64,000 bases of DNA from SAR324 cluster bacterium (GTDB lineage: Bacteria > SAR324 > NAC60-12), in NCBI GenBank assembly GCA_015232315.1, contig JADFZZ010000002.1, forward strand, positions 124,001 to 188,000, in the 5' to 3' direction. Numbering within the stretch: position 1 is the stretch's first letter; each line of letters opens with the position of its first letter. Shown here one piece after another: positions 30,728 to 37,805 of this stretch. The notes under the pieces were generated by a model. It was not told the origin of the DNA. It saw only the letters and a list, made by a program, of their open reading frames with translations, and did not search any database. The position numbers and the translations under genes were made by a program.

Positions 30728-33700
30728 TTACATTTTCAGTAAATTCGCGGGATTCTCTTTCAATGCTTTTTTTACCAGTCTGAACGTTGGCAGATACATG
30801 GAAATCATACCTAAAATAACAGGTAACAGATAATGTGGTGTCCAATAGGTGAAGCTCAAGTCCAGATGTGTTTGTTGAATCATTAATGAAATCAATGCGC
30901 TTAAAATTAATGTACTCGCCAAACTTCCTATAAAGGCTACGAAAAACAAAATGGATGTTTCAATAAGAAATATATTCAGAATGGATTGATTGGAGCCACC
31001 AAAAGAAATCAGCAACCCAATGTCTGAATATTTGCGTTCAATATGTATTTTGCATGAAATCCAGAAATTGAACGATGCCAACAAGACCAGTGAGCCAATG
31101 ATGATCGCCGTTACCAACGCAAACAGATTGGTCATTTTCTGCAGATTGGTGATATCAGAAATCACATCTCCAGCCACGTTAAAGTCCAGATCCGGCCTTT
31201 TTAATAACTGAACGACAGGGATCACATCATCAAGCTTGTCCACATAAACCACTAATTGCTGATATTCTCCCGCACTGTAGGGTTGCGGCTCCAGATCCAG
31301 TTCTTCGGGGTATTCCCAGGCGATCCAGAGGGGGTCCAGTTTTCCAGTAAGTGTCTCTATCATCTGAAGAATATCCTGCCAGTATTCTTTCTGAATTAAC
31401 GGAATATCTTCACTGATCCGGCCAATCGTGAGCAGGATTTCATCCTGATTTTCCAAATAATCCATCAGCATGATCTGTGAATTATTGGTTTCCATGGAGC
31501 AATCTGGATGAAGATAACTGTCACATCTGAATTTATGAACAAGATTCCGCAGAATATCTTCATTCCACTTGTCTGACGGAATGGTCAGGGTAATCTGCCC
31601 AAATCGTTGAGGTTTTATGAGAATTTGCCTGTTGTAATCCAGAAAAAACTCTTCAAGAACAATGAAATCCTTATTATCTGGCAGTTCTTCAATCCGGTCC
31701 AGAATAGCCACATAATAGGAATAGCGCTGTATTCGCAATTCGAGTTGTTTAGGGTTTTGGACAACATGAGTGTTCAGAATGTTTTGGAAATTTTGTGATT
31801 CAATAAAAGCCAGGCCTTTCACATAGTCAGTACTATCAGACAGGATTTTAGATAAATTGGTCACAAACTGATACTGGGCATATTGATCAATAAAACGATA
31901 TTCAGGTTCCTGCGTCAGCAATATATTGAGTTCGGGTGTCTTGTTTGAAACTTCCAGTACCCGTCGAACAATTTTGACGATTTCCTGCTCAAAGCGGTCT
32001 GTGGGTTGTTTATGTTGTTTGAATTTTTTAAATGTACTCAACAAGTCCGGGAACGTTTCAGGCAGGATGTATCCTAACCGTGAAGTCAAAAATGAGTTTG
32101 TGACAATCATCTGGTGTGGGTCAACCGGTCGTGGTTTTGCGAACCATTGAGTCAAATGCTGCTGGCGCATCAAGATCCCCTGGATGGGATCTTCGATAGA
32201 AACAGTTTGTCCAACACCCCGGAGTGTTCTCTGATCAGAAGTTAAAAATTGAAGATGAATTTCGTTTTGGCCCTTGACGTTCACCGCCCCTGAATTTTGA
32301 TTCTGCTGAGGATTATTTTGAGAAACTGTGGGCAGTACAAATTCATTTCCACGACGTTGCATCGAATTCAATTGGGTCATTGTTCCTTGTGTGAAGGTCG
32401 GATATTTTTCGCTGGGAGAGACTCTTAACCGTAAAAAACTGGATTTTTCCAGTTCCTCAATCTGGGCTTGTTCAGATCCTTTCAGAAAACCGATCAACAG
32501 GAATGAAATTGTAAAAAACAGCATAAAAGAGATGGTTTGGACCAATGCCTGGTTGGGCAATTTCAATTCCCGATTAGGGAAAATGTCATTTTTCGCATAT
32601 TGATAACAGAAAGATACAGGTGGTTCCTTGATTTTCTGTTCATGGGGATCCTGGTACACCAACTGCTTTTGGTGTTCTTCTGAAAGTCCAATGCTTGCTT
32701 GCTGGCGTTTGGAAAGAGAAATGGCGTGTTGAATCCATTCTTTGAGATTGGGATGGCCATCACTTTTTCTTAAAAACGATAAATGCCGTCCTTGCAGACG
32801 AGATTCCCCTGTGGAGTTTGATTTAGGCCATTCAACAGGAGAGAGCAACCAGAAATTATCTCCATATTTGTAGGCCAGATCAACATCATGACAAATCAGG
32901 ATGACACACCGCTCTTCAGGCAATGCCTGACACCAGTCGCGTAGTCGCTGTAAAATGATATTGGCACTGTAGGTATCCAATGCCGCAGTGGGTTCATCGG
33001 CAAACATGATGGGGGCATTTGCGAGAATAGCGCGTCCTAGTGAGAATCGCTGTCGCTGTCCCCCTGAAATCTGTGTGGGATATTTCTGGAGATACCCTTC
33101 TTCCAGCCGGACAAATTGTTCGAGAACAAAATCAGAATCAATTCCCTGGCCTTTTTCAATGTGGTGGCCTTTGAGCAGGTTAGATAATTCGAAATTATTT
33201 TTATTATTGAAAGTCCGAATCAGATAATCATCCTGAAACATGAAACTGAAGGCGTTTTGCCTTAAAAAAATCTGTTCTTCCTGATTGAGTTTTTCATCAT
33301 ATTCATATTTTTTCCCGCCATATTCCAGATTCAGCGAAGTTTTTTCATGATCATATTGATCCATCATGGCCAGAATGTTCATAAGGGTTGATTTGCCACA
33401 ACCGTTTCCTCCCATCAGCACTGTGACTTCACCAGTGGGAATGATGATGTCTTCCGTTATGTTGCGCTCAACCCATGTAATGATATGATCCAGACTCATG
33501 GGTTCTTGTGAGGGAACTTCAAAGGCTTCTGCCATTTCTTTCAGAATTTGTGGAGAATGGCCTGATGCCTGATGAAACTGTTCAAACAATTGAGGAATAT
33601 CTAATTCCAGATATTCAACTTTTGACAGATATTCTTCAGAAATATCCCGGAGTTTATTAACACAGGTCTCCATTTTGGGATAAACATTCAGCAGAAACTC

Positions 33701-33760
33701 ATTATTTCCTGACTGAAAATGTCTGACAACCTTTTGTATCTGAAATAAATTTTTCGGCAT
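30728..33760 (-). CDS. Large MacB/FtsX-type ABC transporter with fused ATPase
   Basis: The 1010-aa product has a 90-residue N-terminal helical extension and then an ABC ATPase: Walker A GGNGCGKST (117-125), signature ISGGQRQRF (231 on), Walker B IMFADEPTA (251 on) and H-loop LICHDVD. A first membrane helix (TISFMLFFTISFLLIGFL) lies near residue 410. A periplasmic domain of about 450 residues follows, then three C-terminal helices of the FtsX/MacB permease core (LFALVTAIIIGSLVLL and following). This order equals MacB, but MacB has about 650 residues, so the extension and the periplasmic domain are enlarged. Such transporters move no substrate through the membrane but drive export of periplasmic peptides or lipoproteins. 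No MacA or TolC gene is adjacent. Confidence 0.8.
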   Translation of the reverse strand: MPKNLFQIQKVVRHFQSGNNEFLLNVYPKMETCVNKLRDISEEYLSKVEYLELDIPQLFEQFHQASGHSPQILKEMAEAFEVPSQEPMSLDHIITWVERNITEDIIIPTGEVTVLMGGNGCGKSTLMNILAMMDQYDHEKTSLNLEYGGKKYEYDEKLNQEEQIFLRQNAFSFMFQDDYLIRTFNNKNNFELSNLLKGHHIEKGQGIDSDFVLEQFVRLEEGYLQKYPTQISGGQRQRFSLGRAILANAPIMFADEPTAALDTYSANIILQRLRDWCQALPEERCVILICHDVDLAYKYGDNFWLLSPVEWPKSNSTGESRLQGRHLSFLRKSDGHPNLKEWIQHAISLSKRQQASIGLSEEHQKQLVYQDPHEQKIKEPPVSFCYQYAKNDIFPNRELKLPNQALVQTISFMLFFTISFLLIGFLKGSEQAQIEELEKSSFLRLRVSPSEKYPTFTQGTMTQLNSMQRRGNEFVLPTVSQNNPQQNQNSGAVNVKGQNEIHLQFLTSDQRTLRGVGQTVSIEDPIQGILMRQQHLTQWFAKPRPVDPHQMIVTNSFLTSRLGYILPETFPDLLSTFKKFKQHKQPTDRFEQEIVKIVRRVLEVSNKTPELNILLTQEPEYRFIDQYAQYQFVTNLSKILSDSTDYVKGLAFIESQNFQNILNTHVVQNPKQLELRIQRYSYYVAILDRIEELPDNKDFIVLEEFFLDYNRQILIKPQRFGQITLTIPSDKWNEDILRNLVHKFRCDSYLHPDCSMETNNSQIMLMDYLENQDEILLTIGRISEDIPLIQKEYWQDILQMIETLTGKLDPLWIAWEYPEELDLEPQPYSAGEYQQLVVYVDKLDDVIPVVQLLKRPDLDFNVAGDVISDITNLQKMTNLFALVTAIIIGSLVLLASFNFWISCKIHIERKYSDIGLLISFGGSNQSILNIFLIETSILFFVAFIGSLASTLILSALISLMIQQTHLDLSFTYWTPHYLLPVILGMISMYLPTFRLVKKALKENPANLLKM

Positions 33761-34843: not shown

Positions 34844-35097
34844 GTTTCCTTTTTAAGTAATTGCGGTTAGCAAACTTGAAGCATTATATTTTTATACTTT
34901 GGATTAATTTATAATTAATTGTATTTAATGGATATTTAAAAAAAATTTTAAATACAATAATGCAATTTGCAATTTATTGTGTAGCTATTCTCAACAGGGA
35001 TGATGCAATCATTGTTAGAAAATTCTAGGATTCACACAGATCAAATGATCTAGCACCCGCACCTGATTCAATGTAACTTAAAACAAAGGAGAACACT
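34844..35097. promoter_or_regulatory. AT-rich divergent intergenic region, lipoprotein / NHLP precursor
   Basis: This 254-bp gap separates two divergent genes and is markedly AT-rich, especially 34880-34980, with A/T runs around 34937-34955. No exact sigma-54 or sigma-28 site is seen. A strong ribosome site (AAAGGAGAA) lies just before 35098. Promoters for both genes must be here or very near, but I cannot fix their positions. Confidence 0.4.
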
Positions 35098-35718
35098 ATG
35101 CAACAATATGAATCCATCATTCAAAAAGCCTGGACTGACGCATCTTTCAAATCACGTTTGATGACATCACCTAAAGCAGCGTTTGCTGAAATGGGATATG
35201 ATTTTGGCAACATGGACGTCAAGGTTTTTGATGATGCAGGGGACAATGCTCATTTTGTATTATTGACAAAAGAACAAGCCGCCAGTGTAGATCTGGAAAA
35301 TGATCAGGTTTTGGGACGTGTGACAAAAAAAGCTCTTGAAGACAGCAACTATAAAACACGTCTGATCAGCGATACAACCGCAGCCGTTCGTGAAGTTCTG
35401 GGAGTTGAACCTCCGCTGAACATCCTGGTTCATGAAAATACCGACAAGGTAATCAACCTGGTGATTCCAGCCAATCCTGAAACAGCAGGTGAATTGAGTG
35501 ATACTGATTTGTCCATGGTTGCTGGAGGAAAAGGCCTTGTAATCAACTGTGAAACGATTGCTGGTGCGCTTACAGGTGCGGGCAATCTGACGGCCAAAGT
35601 TGGAAGCTATCTGCCAGGAAATTTTGGCGGATTGTTCAGCTCATTAGGACCTATCATGACTGGTGGTGGTAGCATGGTTGGAAAAACATCAAACTTCCTG
35701 GGTTTTATGGGTGCCTGA
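35098..35718 (+). CDS. NHLP-leader (nitrile hydratase-like leader) peptide precursor
   Basis: The 206-aa product is a ribosomal peptide precursor of the NHLP type. Residues 4-55 resemble the alpha subunit of nitrile hydratase (IIQKAWTDASFKSRLM, SPKAAFAEMGY). Residues 75-125 repeat this module (KKALEDSNYKTRLI, TAAVREVLGV, NLVIPANP). A recognition helix and double-glycine end follow: ELSDTDLSMVAGG, with cleavage expected after Gly144. The core of 62 residues is Gly/Ser/Thr-rich and hydrophobic with one cysteine (Cys151) and G-x-x-x-G-like spacings. The strong ribosome site and its own terminator show a monocistronic, well-expressed gene. No radical SAM, lanthipeptide, YcaO or C39-peptidase gene is in the window, so maturation enzymes, if any, are elsewhere. 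Confidence 0.85.
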   Translation: MQQYESIIQKAWTDASFKSRLMTSPKAAFAEMGYDFGNMDVKVFDDAGDNAHFVLLTKEQAASVDLENDQVLGRVTKKALEDSNYKTRLISDTTAAVREVLGVEPPLNILVHENTDKVINLVIPANPETAGELSDTDLSMVAGGKGLVINCETIAGALTGAGNLTAKVGSYLPGNFGGLFSSLGPIMTGGGSMVGKTSNFLGFMGA

Positions 35719-35748
35719 TTGAGTAACCCCCCGGGTAATTAAATTTCA

Positions 35749-35806
35749 AGAGGTGACTTCCCTGCCTGCCTCCTCATTTCACATTGGGAAGTCACCTCTT
35801 TTTTTA
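35749..35806 (+). terminator. Rho-independent terminator of the NHLP precursor gene
   Basis: A perfect 14-bp stem (AGAGGTGACTTCCC at 35749-35762 with its complement at 35786-35799) is followed by a run of seven T. It lies 31 bp after the stop. The pairing is the strongest terminator hairpin in the window and isolates the precursor gene from the pentapeptide-repeat gene. Confidence 0.93.
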
Positions 35807-35984
35807 TTGTGATGATGTCACATTTTTACGCAGTCCGTCAATATCTCTTCCATAGAATCCATTCTGAAAACATTAAAAAACATAAATCTTCCTTGAGGAA
35901 ACAGAAATACCTCGCTACATTGATAAATCAATATCGTCCAAATATTTTGTATTGGAAATCCCTTCATTTTTCAGGATTTCAGGA

Positions 35985-37805
35985 ATGAACGCAAAAATTG
36001 ATTTATTACCTTCGTTCAAACGCCTTTTGTTATTCGTGACAGTAATTCAGGTGCCTTTTTTTTGCTTGGCGTTTGATTTGCGTGATATGGATAAATTTCG
36101 CCAAACGAAAAGCTGTATCAAATGCGATTTGAGAGAAGCGGGCTTACAAAAACATCAGCTTCCAGGTGTGTTTTTATCCAAATCAGATTTGACTGGAGCC
36201 AATTTCAGTGGTGCCAATCTCTATCAGGCCAATTTTTCAGGAAGTAAACTTTCTCAGGCTGATTTAAGCGATACCATATTGACCAAGGCATATATGGTTA
36301 ATATTGATCTCAGCATGACTAAACTTCAGGACTCACAACTTCAGGGAGCTAATCTGAAAGGAAGTCTGCTGAAAAAAGCAAATCTGAAAAAGGCAAATCT
36401 GTCTGGTGCAAATTTAAGGGATGCGGATTTCTCTGAAGCCGAAATGTCTGAGGCAAACCTGAATTCAAGCCTGATGCAGGGAACAATAGTGGAACGGAGT
36501 AATCTGCGAGGCACATTGCTGAATTACGCACGCCTGGATCAGGCTGTTTTTAAAGACTCAAATCTGGCCAATGCTGATTTATCAAATAGTATCATCAATG
36601 GTTCAGATTTTTCCGGAACGCGGATGGAGCGATCCAAATGGTATGGCGCAAAAATTCAGGGTTCTAATTTTCAATCCGCAGTGTTGAATAATGCGGATAT
36701 GCAGAGAACTGATCTCAAAGAAATAAACTTTTCAGAGGCGCAAATGATTGAAGTCAATTTATCTGAATCACAACTTGAAGCGGTGGTTCTGAAAAACACC
36801 AATCTGTCAAATGCTGATCTTAAAAATACGATATTTATTAAGGTGGTATTCATTTCAGTTCAGTTATCAGGCGCAAATCTGTCTCAGGCTGAAATGAACG
36901 AAGTTATGATGAAAGATACAAATTTATCTGAAGCCAGGCTGGAGGAAGTTCAACTTGAGCGGGCAACTTTGTCAGGCTCCAATTTGATGCATGCCCGGTT
37001 ACACAATGCCAATTTGTCAGGTGCGGATTTGACCGGCGTCGATTTGACCGGAGCAGATCTGGATGGTGCCAATTTGACAGGGGCAAATTTGAGCCAAGCG
37101 ATTTTAAAAGGCGTTCATTGGGGACATGCCAATCTTGAAAATGCTGTATTAGGTAATGCTCAGGTGGTTAATGCTGATTTTTCAAATGTGAATCTTGCGG
37201 GCAGTCAATGGCAAAATGCCAGTTTTACAGGAATTACATGGCCGGATACATTGCAGGACATCAATTTTTCATCAGCCCAAATCATTGGCGGGCATTTTGA
37301 GGGGAAAAGAATTCAACGGGTTCAATGGCAGAATGCCGAGTTGTCATATTCAAACTTTTCAAATGCAAAGCTGGAACAAACAGATTTTTCAAAAGCCATT
37401 CTGACAGGATGTTTGTTTAATCAAACAAAACTGAATCAGGTGTTGTTCAATCAGTCTTCCATGCCTGGCGTCAGTTTTACGTCATCCCGTATACTTCATA
37501 CCGATTTTTCCAAGGCCTATTTACTGAAAAGTATTTTTAAAAAATCTGTTTTGGAGAATGTACTCTTTGTGCAGGCGGATCTTTCCTTTGCTTTGTTCCA
37601 GGAATCTCAATTACCTTCCGCATCTCTAAATCAATCCATACTTCAGGATACTCAGTTTCCGGGGTCGATTCTGGATCAGGCCAATTTTTCTGGTGCGAGA
37701 ATGCTACGGAATAACTTTATGAGATCCTCTTTGAAAAATGCTGTCTGGCATAATGGCAAGATTTGTTCTCCAAATTTTCCAGGTCGATGTGTGACCACTC
37801 CTTAA
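35985..37805 (+). CDS. Secreted pentapeptide-repeat protein
   Basis: The frame opens with a TTG at 35952; the ATG at 35985 is preferred because it leads into a signal peptide (FKRLLLFVTVIQVPFFCLA). Two cysteines follow (SCIKCDL) and then about 110 tandem A(N/D)Lxx-type pentapeptides to the end, for example ANLSGADLTGVDLTGADLDG near the middle. Such repeats fold as a right-handed quadrilateral beta helix. Cytoplasmic relatives protect gyrase (Qnr, McbG); this one is exported, so that role does not apply directly. It sits 179 bp after the NHLP gene terminator. Its stop overlaps the convergent rsmA gene by 4 bp. Confidence 0.85.
   Translation: MNAKIDLLPSFKRLLLFVTVIQVPFFCLAFDLRDMDKFRQTKSCIKCDLREAGLQKHQLPGVFLSKSDLTGANFSGANLYQANFSGSKLSQADLSDTILTKAYMVNIDLSMTKLQDSQLQGANLKGSLLKKANLKKANLSGANLRDADFSEAEMSEANLNSSLMQGTIVERSNLRGTLLNYARLDQAVFKDSNLANADLSNSIINGSDFSGTRMERSKWYGAKIQGSNFQSAVLNNADMQRTDLKEINFSEAQMIEVNLSESQLEAVVLKNTNLSNADLKNTIFIKVVFISVQLSGANLSQAEMNEVMMKDTNLSEARLEEVQLERATLSGSNLMHARLHNANLSGADLTGVDLTGADLDGANLTGANLSQAILKGVHWGHANLENAVLGNAQVVNADFSNVNLAGSQWQNASFTGITWPDTLQDINFSSAQIIGGHFEGKRIQRVQWQNAELSYSNFSNAKLEQTDFSKAILTGCLFNQTKLNQVLFNQSSMPGVSFTSSRILHTDFSKAYLLKSIFKKSVLENVLFVQADLSFALFQESQLPSASLNQSILQDTQFPGSILDQANFSGARMLRNNFMRSSLKNAVWHNGKICSPNFPGRCVTTP

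What the first reader, a model, noticed from the sequence alone, without database searches (positions are those of the whole stretch)
35098..35718. Orphan NHLP-type precursor with a doubled leader and a large glycine-rich core
The sequence shows two nitrile-hydratase-like leader modules in tandem, a double-glycine site (VAGG, Gly143-144) and a 62-residue core with a single cysteine. It has a strong ribosome site and a dedicated terminator. NHLP leaders are known to guide modification enzymes and peptidase-ABC exporters, but none of these is within 35 kb upstream or 28 kb downstream. The core has too few cysteines for a usual lanthipeptide. It may be an unmodified bacteriocin-like peptide or use enzymes encoded elsewhere.
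Basis: partly seen in the sequence, partly recalled or inferred. Interest (0 to 1): 0.75.

Follow-up and report, generated by a model that had tools for sequence, protein, structure and literature searches.

The report
Scattered lipopeptide precursor family, SAR324 bacterium
The gene makes one of seven scattered copies of a secreted peptide precursor whose cutting-and-export machine and two likely modifying enzymes (one expected to add a fatty acid, one a thioether ring) lie elsewhere in the same genome, so it is not a true orphan, and its product is kept nearly unchanged in four of the copies.

Summary
In detail: window 35098-35718 encodes a 206-residue NHLP precursor (TIGR03793 88.9 bits, cutoff 50.9) with two leader modules, a GG site at 143-144 and a 62-residue, one-cysteine core. 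The "orphan" reading holds only locally. The genome (a relative of SAR324) carries seven such genes at six places among unrelated genes. Elsewhere it has one NHLM-type peptidase-ABC exporter, in an operon with a tandem GNAT, TolC and HlyD, and one unlinked LanM with a CCG zinc motif. A SAR324 genome of the same family has LanM, a homologous GNAT, a doubled NHLP precursor, HlyD and the exporter in one cluster.

All seven cores begin with Lys right after GG, the position that the tandem GNAT NpuN acylates in nostolysamides; all have one Cys. Across 80 exporter loci, Lys1 cores occur only in loci with the GNAT. I infer a dispersed selidamide-like lipo-RiPP: acylation at Lys1, possibly one thioether ring, then cleavage and export. 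Unlike prochlorosins, the core is conserved: in p1-p4 it changes less than the leader (core dN/dS 0.06-0.13). Chemistry and function are untested. This is a new variant of a known kind.

The parts
35098..35718 (+). NHLP-family RiPP precursor gene (206 aa), paralog p1 of 7
   Evidence: TIGR03793 88.9 bits; 7 paralogs
35098..35301 (+). leader module A (residues 1-68), alpha3-beta2
   Evidence: TIGR03793 match to residues 4-68; AF2 model
35302..35529 (+). leader module B (residues 69-144), alpha3-beta2, ends at the GG site
   Evidence: TIGR03793 residues 69-144; AF2 model
35494..35511 (+). L(X)4L enzyme-docking motif L133-L138, at -12 to -7 from the cleavage site; both Leu invariant in the 7 paralogs
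   Evidence: the same -12 to -7 position is described for proteusin leaders in PMC10858898
35530..35715 (+). 62-residue core (residues 145-206), Gly-rich and hydrophobic
   Evidence: disordered in the AF2 model
35530..35532 (+). Lys145 = core position 1, invariant in 7/7 paralogs; predicted acylation site
   Evidence: NpuN acylates Lys1 (PMC13060382)
35548..35550 (+). Cys151, the only core Cys, invariant in 7/7; predicted ring partner of a nearby Ser/Thr
35038..35057 (+). inverted repeat AGATCAAATGATCT + AGCACC, 40 nt before the ATG; shared only with p2 and p3 (candidate operator or mRNA hairpin)
   Evidence: exactly 3 matches in the 5.25-Mb genome, each before a paralog; reversed-pattern control 0
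35085..35091 (+). ribosome-binding site AAAGGAG
35748..35807 (+). intrinsic terminator: 15-bp stem, 23-nt loop, then T run
   Evidence: z -5.9

Best explanation
The gene encodes the precursor of a secreted, probably lipidated RiPP of the NHLP/proteusin class (selidamide-like), made by a dispersed pathway. Shown by sequence: seven precursors with a doubled leader, an L(X)4L docking motif at -12/-7, GG, Lys1 and a single Cys; one NHLM exporter with C39, membrane and ATPase domains, in an operon with a tandem GNAT, TolC and HlyD; one unlinked CCG-type LanM. Inferred: (1) the leader docks the enzymes in trans; (2) the tandem GNAT attaches a fatty acyl chain to Lys1; (3) the LanM dehydrates a nearby Ser/Thr and joins it to the single Cys, giving one ring (CxT in p1-p5, CxxxS in p6 and p7); (4) the exporter's C39 domain cuts after GG and sends the acylated core out through HlyD and TolC. 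The product is a long, Gly-rich, hydrophobic, membrane-associating peptide whose sequence is under purifying selection, so the copies most likely serve dosage or differential expression of nearly the same product, not combinatorial diversity. Step likelihoods (my estimates): step 4, 0.9; step 2, 0.65; step 3, 0.5.
For: NHLP leader above cutoff. Only one exporter in the genome passes the NHLM ABC1 cutoff (1094 bits, cutoff 853). HlyD of NHLM type 391.8 bits, LanM 746 bits, C39 domain 7e-36. The GNAT overlaps tolC by 4 bp and is the only full-length match to its model in the genome. In a same-family SAR324 genome, LanM, GNAT, doubled NHLP precursor, HlyD and exporter are clustered; the GNATs are homologous over the whole length (E 2e-25) and the exporters 58% identical. 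The GNAT model hits 13 of 80 exporter loci across several phyla. Lys1 cores: 6/23 precursors in GNAT+ loci against 0/54 in GNAT- loci; 3/10 against 0/20 loci, Fisher p 0.03. NpuN is a tandem GNAT that acylates core Lys1, and gene clusters with its relatives carry NHLP or Nif11 precursors (PMC13060382). Phaeornamide combines an NHLP precursor, LanM, GNAT and exporter (PMC9505594). Invariant K145 and C151. No Nif11 precursor or YcaO in the genome.
Against: In this genome the LanM is linked neither to the precursors nor to the exporter, and the precursors' inverted repeat is not upstream of the LanM or the GNAT operon. The core of the clustered SAR324 precursor starts with Ser, not Lys. The Lys1 test is post hoc and its loci are not independent. 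p1 and p3 have no Ser/Thr before the Cys, so a ring would need the less usual C-to-N direction, although ProcM-clade enzymes do both (PMC13060382). A radical SAM/SPASM gene beside the exporter could be a further or alternative modifier. No chemistry was measured.
Confidence: 0.62

Rival explanations
1. Unmodified, bacteriocin-like peptide: only the exporter acts, cutting after GG and releasing a linear Gly-rich hydrophobic 62-mer, much like a class II bacteriocin.
For: Long Gly-rich hydrophobic core with a single Cys; in this genome neither LanM nor GNAT adjoins a precursor.
Against: Invariant Lys1 and Cys151; the tandem GNAT lies in the exporter operon and a homologous one lies beside a doubled NHLP precursor in a relative; no immunity-like small gene was noticed beside the copies.
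Confidence: 0.15
2. Acylated but not lanthionine-bridged: the GNAT lipidates Lys1, the LanM has other (unfound) substrates, and the single Cys stays free or forms a disulfide dimer.
For: GNAT+ loci with Lys1 cores lacking Cys and with no LanM in the fetched stretch exist (L091, L100); here the GNAT is tied to the exporter and the LanM is not; core size and a single Cys are atypical for lanthipeptides.
Against: The Cys is invariant with Ser/Thr at +2 or +4 in all seven; no other LanM substrate family was found (NHLP only, no Nif11); LanM is clustered with a single-Cys doubled precursor in the relative.
Confidence: 0.2
3. Prochlorosin-like combinatorial library: one promiscuous CCG LanM modifies many diverging cores to give diverse cyclic peptides.
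For: Scattered precursors and a single unlinked CCG LanM, the layout described for prochlorosins (PMC10783134).
Against: p1-p4 cores are more conserved than leaders (76-90% against 50-78% identity) and core dN/dS is 0.06-0.13 with near-saturated dS, the reverse of hypervariable cores; the leader is NHLP, not Nif11.
Confidence: 0.07
4. A non-secreted nitrile-hydratase-like protein or pseudoenzyme, not a precursor.
For: Pfam NHase_alpha spans both modules and true NHase alpha chains of relatives also match the leader model twice.
Against: The CTLCSC metal motif seen in the relatives' NHases is absent; the GG site, the L(X)4L motif and a matching NHLM exporter are present.
Confidence: 0.02

Closest known systems
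Selidamides: phaeornamide (PMC9505594), nostolysamides (PMC13060382), kamptornamide
   Same: Leader ending in GG, tandem GNAT of the RiPP-associated kind, LanM and peptidase-ABC exporter encoded; Lys at core position 1 as in NpuA; a Cys with a Ser/Thr a few residues on near the core N-terminus
   Different: Genes dispersed; seven precursors; doubled leader; core of 43-65 residues with one Cys instead of 25 residues with four (NpuA); acylation not shown; NpuA leader is Nif11, not NHLP
Prochlorosins / synechococsins (ProcM, SyncM)
   Same: One unlinked LanM with a CCG motif and precursors scattered singly over the genome
   Different: NHLP instead of Nif11 leaders; core conserved by purifying selection in four copies; a GNAT is present
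NHLP/NHLM export systems (Haft et al. 2010, PMC2887384)
   Same: TIGR03793 leader, TIGR03794 HlyD, TIGR03796 exporter; precursors away from the enzymes were already noted there
   Different: Two leader modules instead of one; long core instead of about 26 residues; no TIGR03797-type second ABC gene noticed beside the exporter
Doubled-NHLP precursors in other phyla (L099 Selenomonadales, L100 Wallbacteria, L086 Gemmatimonadota, L151 cyanobacterium)
   Same: Two leader modules and a GG site; L100 also has the GNAT and two Lys1 cores
   Different: Unrelated cores; precursors lie near the exporter

Membership tests
NHLP leader family (TIGR03793) | leader domain above the curated cutoff | tested here: met
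   88.9 bits, cutoff 50.9
NHLP leader family (TIGR03793) | GG-type cleavage site closing the leader and L(X)4L at -12/-7 | tested here: met
   G143-G144, L133, L138 invariant in 7/7
NHLP leader family (TIGR03793) | NHLM peptidase-ABC exporter in the genome | tested here: met
   TIGR03796 1094 bits; C39, membrane and ATPase domains
Selidamide | tandem GNAT linked to an NHLP/Nif11 export or biosynthesis locus | tested here: met
   GNAT-TolC-HlyD-exporter operon; clustered homolog in a SAR324 relative
Selidamide | GNAT belongs to the NpuN/PhaN clade | not testable with these tools
   NpuN and PhaN sequences were not at hand; only domain layout and P-loop-like stretches (RGQGLA, QHFGLG) could be compared with the published description
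Selidamide | acylatable Lys/Orn in the core | tested here: met
   Lys1 in 7/7
Selidamide | fatty acyl group on that side chain | not testable with these tools
   needs mass spectrometry
Class II lanthipeptide | LanM in the genome | tested here: met
   one, TIGR03897 746 bits
Class II lanthipeptide | core with Cys and Ser/Thr | tested here: met
   one Cys, 8-13 Ser/Thr
Class II lanthipeptide | LanM clustered with the precursor | tested here: not met
   unlinked in this genome; clustered in the relative
Class II lanthipeptide | lanthionine ring present | not testable with these tools
   needs mass spectrometry
Prochlorosin-like system | single CCG LanM with scattered precursors | tested here: met
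Prochlorosin-like system | Nif11 leader | tested here: not met
Prochlorosin-like system | hypervariable core behind a conserved leader | tested here: not met
   reverse pattern in p1-p4
TOMM (thiazole/oxazole) | YcaO cyclodehydratase | tested here: not met
   no YcaO in the genome

The most novel reading that the evidence does not exclude
A dispersed lipo-RiPP system that works as a multi-copy, single-product family: four anciently diverged precursor genes at separate places make almost the same 62-residue, Lys1-lipidated, single-ring, Gly-rich membrane peptide, kept by purifying selection, with three of the copies under a private inverted-repeat element. This would be the opposite of the diversity-oriented logic of other scattered RiPP families and would suggest a structural or signalling role.
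Probability: 0.35. Interest if true: 0.7.

Novelty: new variant of a known kind. Interest (0 to 1): 0.56.

Why it matters
It gives a SAR324 bacterium, from a little-studied lineage, a testable dispersed lipopeptide pathway and turns an apparent orphan into a complete parts list: seven precursors, one GNAT, one LanM, one exporter. Scattered RiPP precursor families are usually explained as libraries of diverse products; here four copies keep the same core, which calls for another explanation. The link between the tandem GNAT and Lys1 across phyla is a simple predictor of lipidation sites in NHLP precursors. For genome mining, cluster-based tools would miss this system.

Tried and rejected
Shared promoter motif between precursors, LanM and GNAT operon: not found; the inverted repeat occurs only before p1-p3. 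Origin of the doubled leader, whole NHase alpha (itself a two-fold pseudo-repeat around CTLCSC) against tandem duplication of one NHLP module: inconclusive; both halves score highest with the single-NHLP model (A 33-53 bits, B 61-72), and half B is not closer to the NHase C-half, which mildly favours duplication. Close relatives of the precursor in genome contigs: none confirmed; none at E <= 1e-12 in the other 51 genomes of the phylum; the weaker hits in relatives are mostly true NHase alpha chains. YcaO and Nif11 in this genome: none. Solved relatives of the GNAT: only one weak hit. SAR324 together with proteusin in the paper library: none. Gene conversion as the reason for the alike cores: disfavoured, since synonymous sites in the cores are as diverged as in the leaders.

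Full report
THE OBSERVATION. The ORF at 35098-35718 encodes 206 residues. It matches the NHLP leader model TIGR03793 at 88.9 bits (cutoff 50.9) with two stretches, and Pfam NHase_alpha over residues 6-140. AAAGGAG stands 6 nt before the ATG. The downstream hairpin is real (15 bp, dG -26.5 kcal/mol, z -5.9). An AlphaFold2 model built with doubled precursors from other phyla shows two alpha3-beta2 modules with good confidence and a disordered core; its best PDB matches are nitrile hydratase alpha chains. The leader carries an L(X)4L motif at -12 to -7, the position described for proteusin leaders (PMC10858898), and both Leu are invariant in the paralogs.

NOT AN ORPHAN. The genome (5.25 Mb, 88 contigs, 95% complete) holds seven precursors: p1 (the window gene), p2 (C2:323669-324286), p3 (C35:2466-3074), p4 (C48:8815-9435), the tandem pair p6-p5 (C2:246942-248175) and p7 (C4:50029-50583). 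Their neighbours are unrelated genes at each place. One exporter in the genome passes the NHLM cutoff (TIGR03796, 1094 bits against 853). It sits on contig C16 in the order GNAT, TolC, HlyD (TIGR03794, 392 bits), exporter, with the GNAT and tolC reading frames overlapping by 4 bp. It has C39, membrane and ATPase domains. One LanM (1079 aa, TIGR03897 746 bits) lies alone on C29; its zinc motif reads CCG, as in the ProcM group (PMC10027976). No YcaO and no Nif11 precursor was found.

WHY THESE PARTS BELONG TOGETHER. Among 115 other genomes searched, only G005, of the same family, has a LanM, and it also has a doubled NHLP precursor above the cutoff. There the order is S41 peptidase-like gene, LanM, GNAT, doubled precursor (25-residue core with one Cys), M48 peptidase, a cyclic-nucleotide-binding-like gene, HlyD, exporter, all on one strand of one contig. 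The exporters are 58% identical, the LanMs 25%, and the GNATs are homologous end to end (26%, E 2e-25). The GNAT model has one full-length match in the window's genome, which makes its place in the exporter operon unlikely to be chance. It also hits 13 of 80 NHLM-exporter loci from several phyla.

THE LYS1 CLUE. In nostolysamides the tandem GNAT NpuN acylates Lys at core position 1; relatives of NpuN lie in clusters with NHLP or Nif11 precursors, not always with a lanthionine synthetase; and the first ring there joins Cys5 and Thr9, made by a ProcM-clade enzyme working in both directions (PMC13060382). All seven cores here start with Lys right after GG and have a single Cys at position 7-11 with Thr at +2 (p1-p5) or Ser at +4 (p6, p7). 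Across the 80 exporter loci, Lys1 occurs in 6 of 23 precursors (3 of 10 loci) where the GNAT is present and in 0 of 54 (0 of 20 loci) where it is not (Fisher 0.03 by loci). This test was thought of after the Lys was seen, and related loci are not independent, so it is supporting evidence only. Phaeornamide gives a precedent for NHLP precursor, LanM, GNAT and exporter in one pathway (PMC9505594).

MECHANISM. Shown: the gene set, the leader, the cleavage motif, the conserved residues. Inferred: docking of the enzymes on the doubled leader in trans, acylation of Lys1, formation of one ring at Cys151, cleavage after Gly144 and export through HlyD-TolC. I consider cleavage and export very likely, acylation likely, and the ring about even, because the LanM is unlinked here and GNAT+ loci with Lys1 cores lacking Cys exist (L091, L100).

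CONSERVED CORE. In p1-p4 the cores are 76-90% identical and the leaders 50-78%. Synonymous sites are near saturation in both parts, while core dN/dS is 0.06-0.13 (Nei-Gojobori, rough at such distances). So the copies are old, not recent duplicates or obvious products of gene conversion, and the core is what selection holds. Prochlorosins show conserved leaders and variable cores (PMC10783134). The cores of p5-p7 diverge but keep Lys1, Cys and a PL(L/M)TGG stretch. An inverted repeat (AGATCA-N3/4-GATCT-N-GCACC) lies 36-40 nt before p1, p2 and p3 and nowhere else in the genome; since the pattern was drawn from these sites, only its absence elsewhere is informative.

THE DOUBLED LEADER. True nitrile hydratase alpha chains in relatives also match the NHLP model twice, on either side of CTLCSC, so a doubled NHLP could be a whole NHase alpha that lost its metal site. 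Half-by-half scoring did not decide; it mildly favours duplication of one NHLP module. Doubled precursors also occur in Selenomonadales, Wallbacteria, Gemmatimonadota and cyanobacteria, so the doubling is unusual but not unique.

VERDICT. A real, well-conserved precursor family with its machinery elsewhere in the genome; a dispersed, selidamide-like system and a new variant of a known kind. The chemistry and the biological role remain untested.

Noticed in passing
35952-37805 (+): A 617-aa pentapeptide-repeat protein directly downstream of the precursor; another pentapeptide-repeat-like protein lies near the LanM (L019:12933-13922). Possibly coincidence.
   Followed up: partly
30728-33760 (-): 1010-aa protein with an ABC ATPase domain near the N-terminus and an FtsX-type permease at the C-terminus in one chain.
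   Followed up: partly
39868-59989: Five flagellin-like genes (39868, 48863, 52937, 56983, 58559) together with a FliD-like and two FliS-like ORFs, judged from the N-terminal sequences only.
   Followed up: no
L019:10509-12626: 705-aa ORF 73 nt downstream of the LanM, with no Pfam match; a possible partner of the LanM.
   Followed up: partly
L018:11765-12871 (-): Radical SAM/SPASM protein convergent with the exporter gene; below every curated NCBIfam cutoff seen, could belong to the neighbouring sugar/polysaccharide genes or be a further modifier.
   Followed up: partly
L076:6053-14515: SAR324 cluster with S41 and M48 peptidase genes beside LanM, GNAT and a doubled NHLP precursor; the peptidases' role is unknown.
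   Followed up: partly
L091 and L100: GNAT with Lys1 cores that lack Cys and with no LanM in the fetched stretch (Bacillota, Wallbacteria): candidate lipidated, non-lanthionine NHLP peptides.
   Followed up: partly
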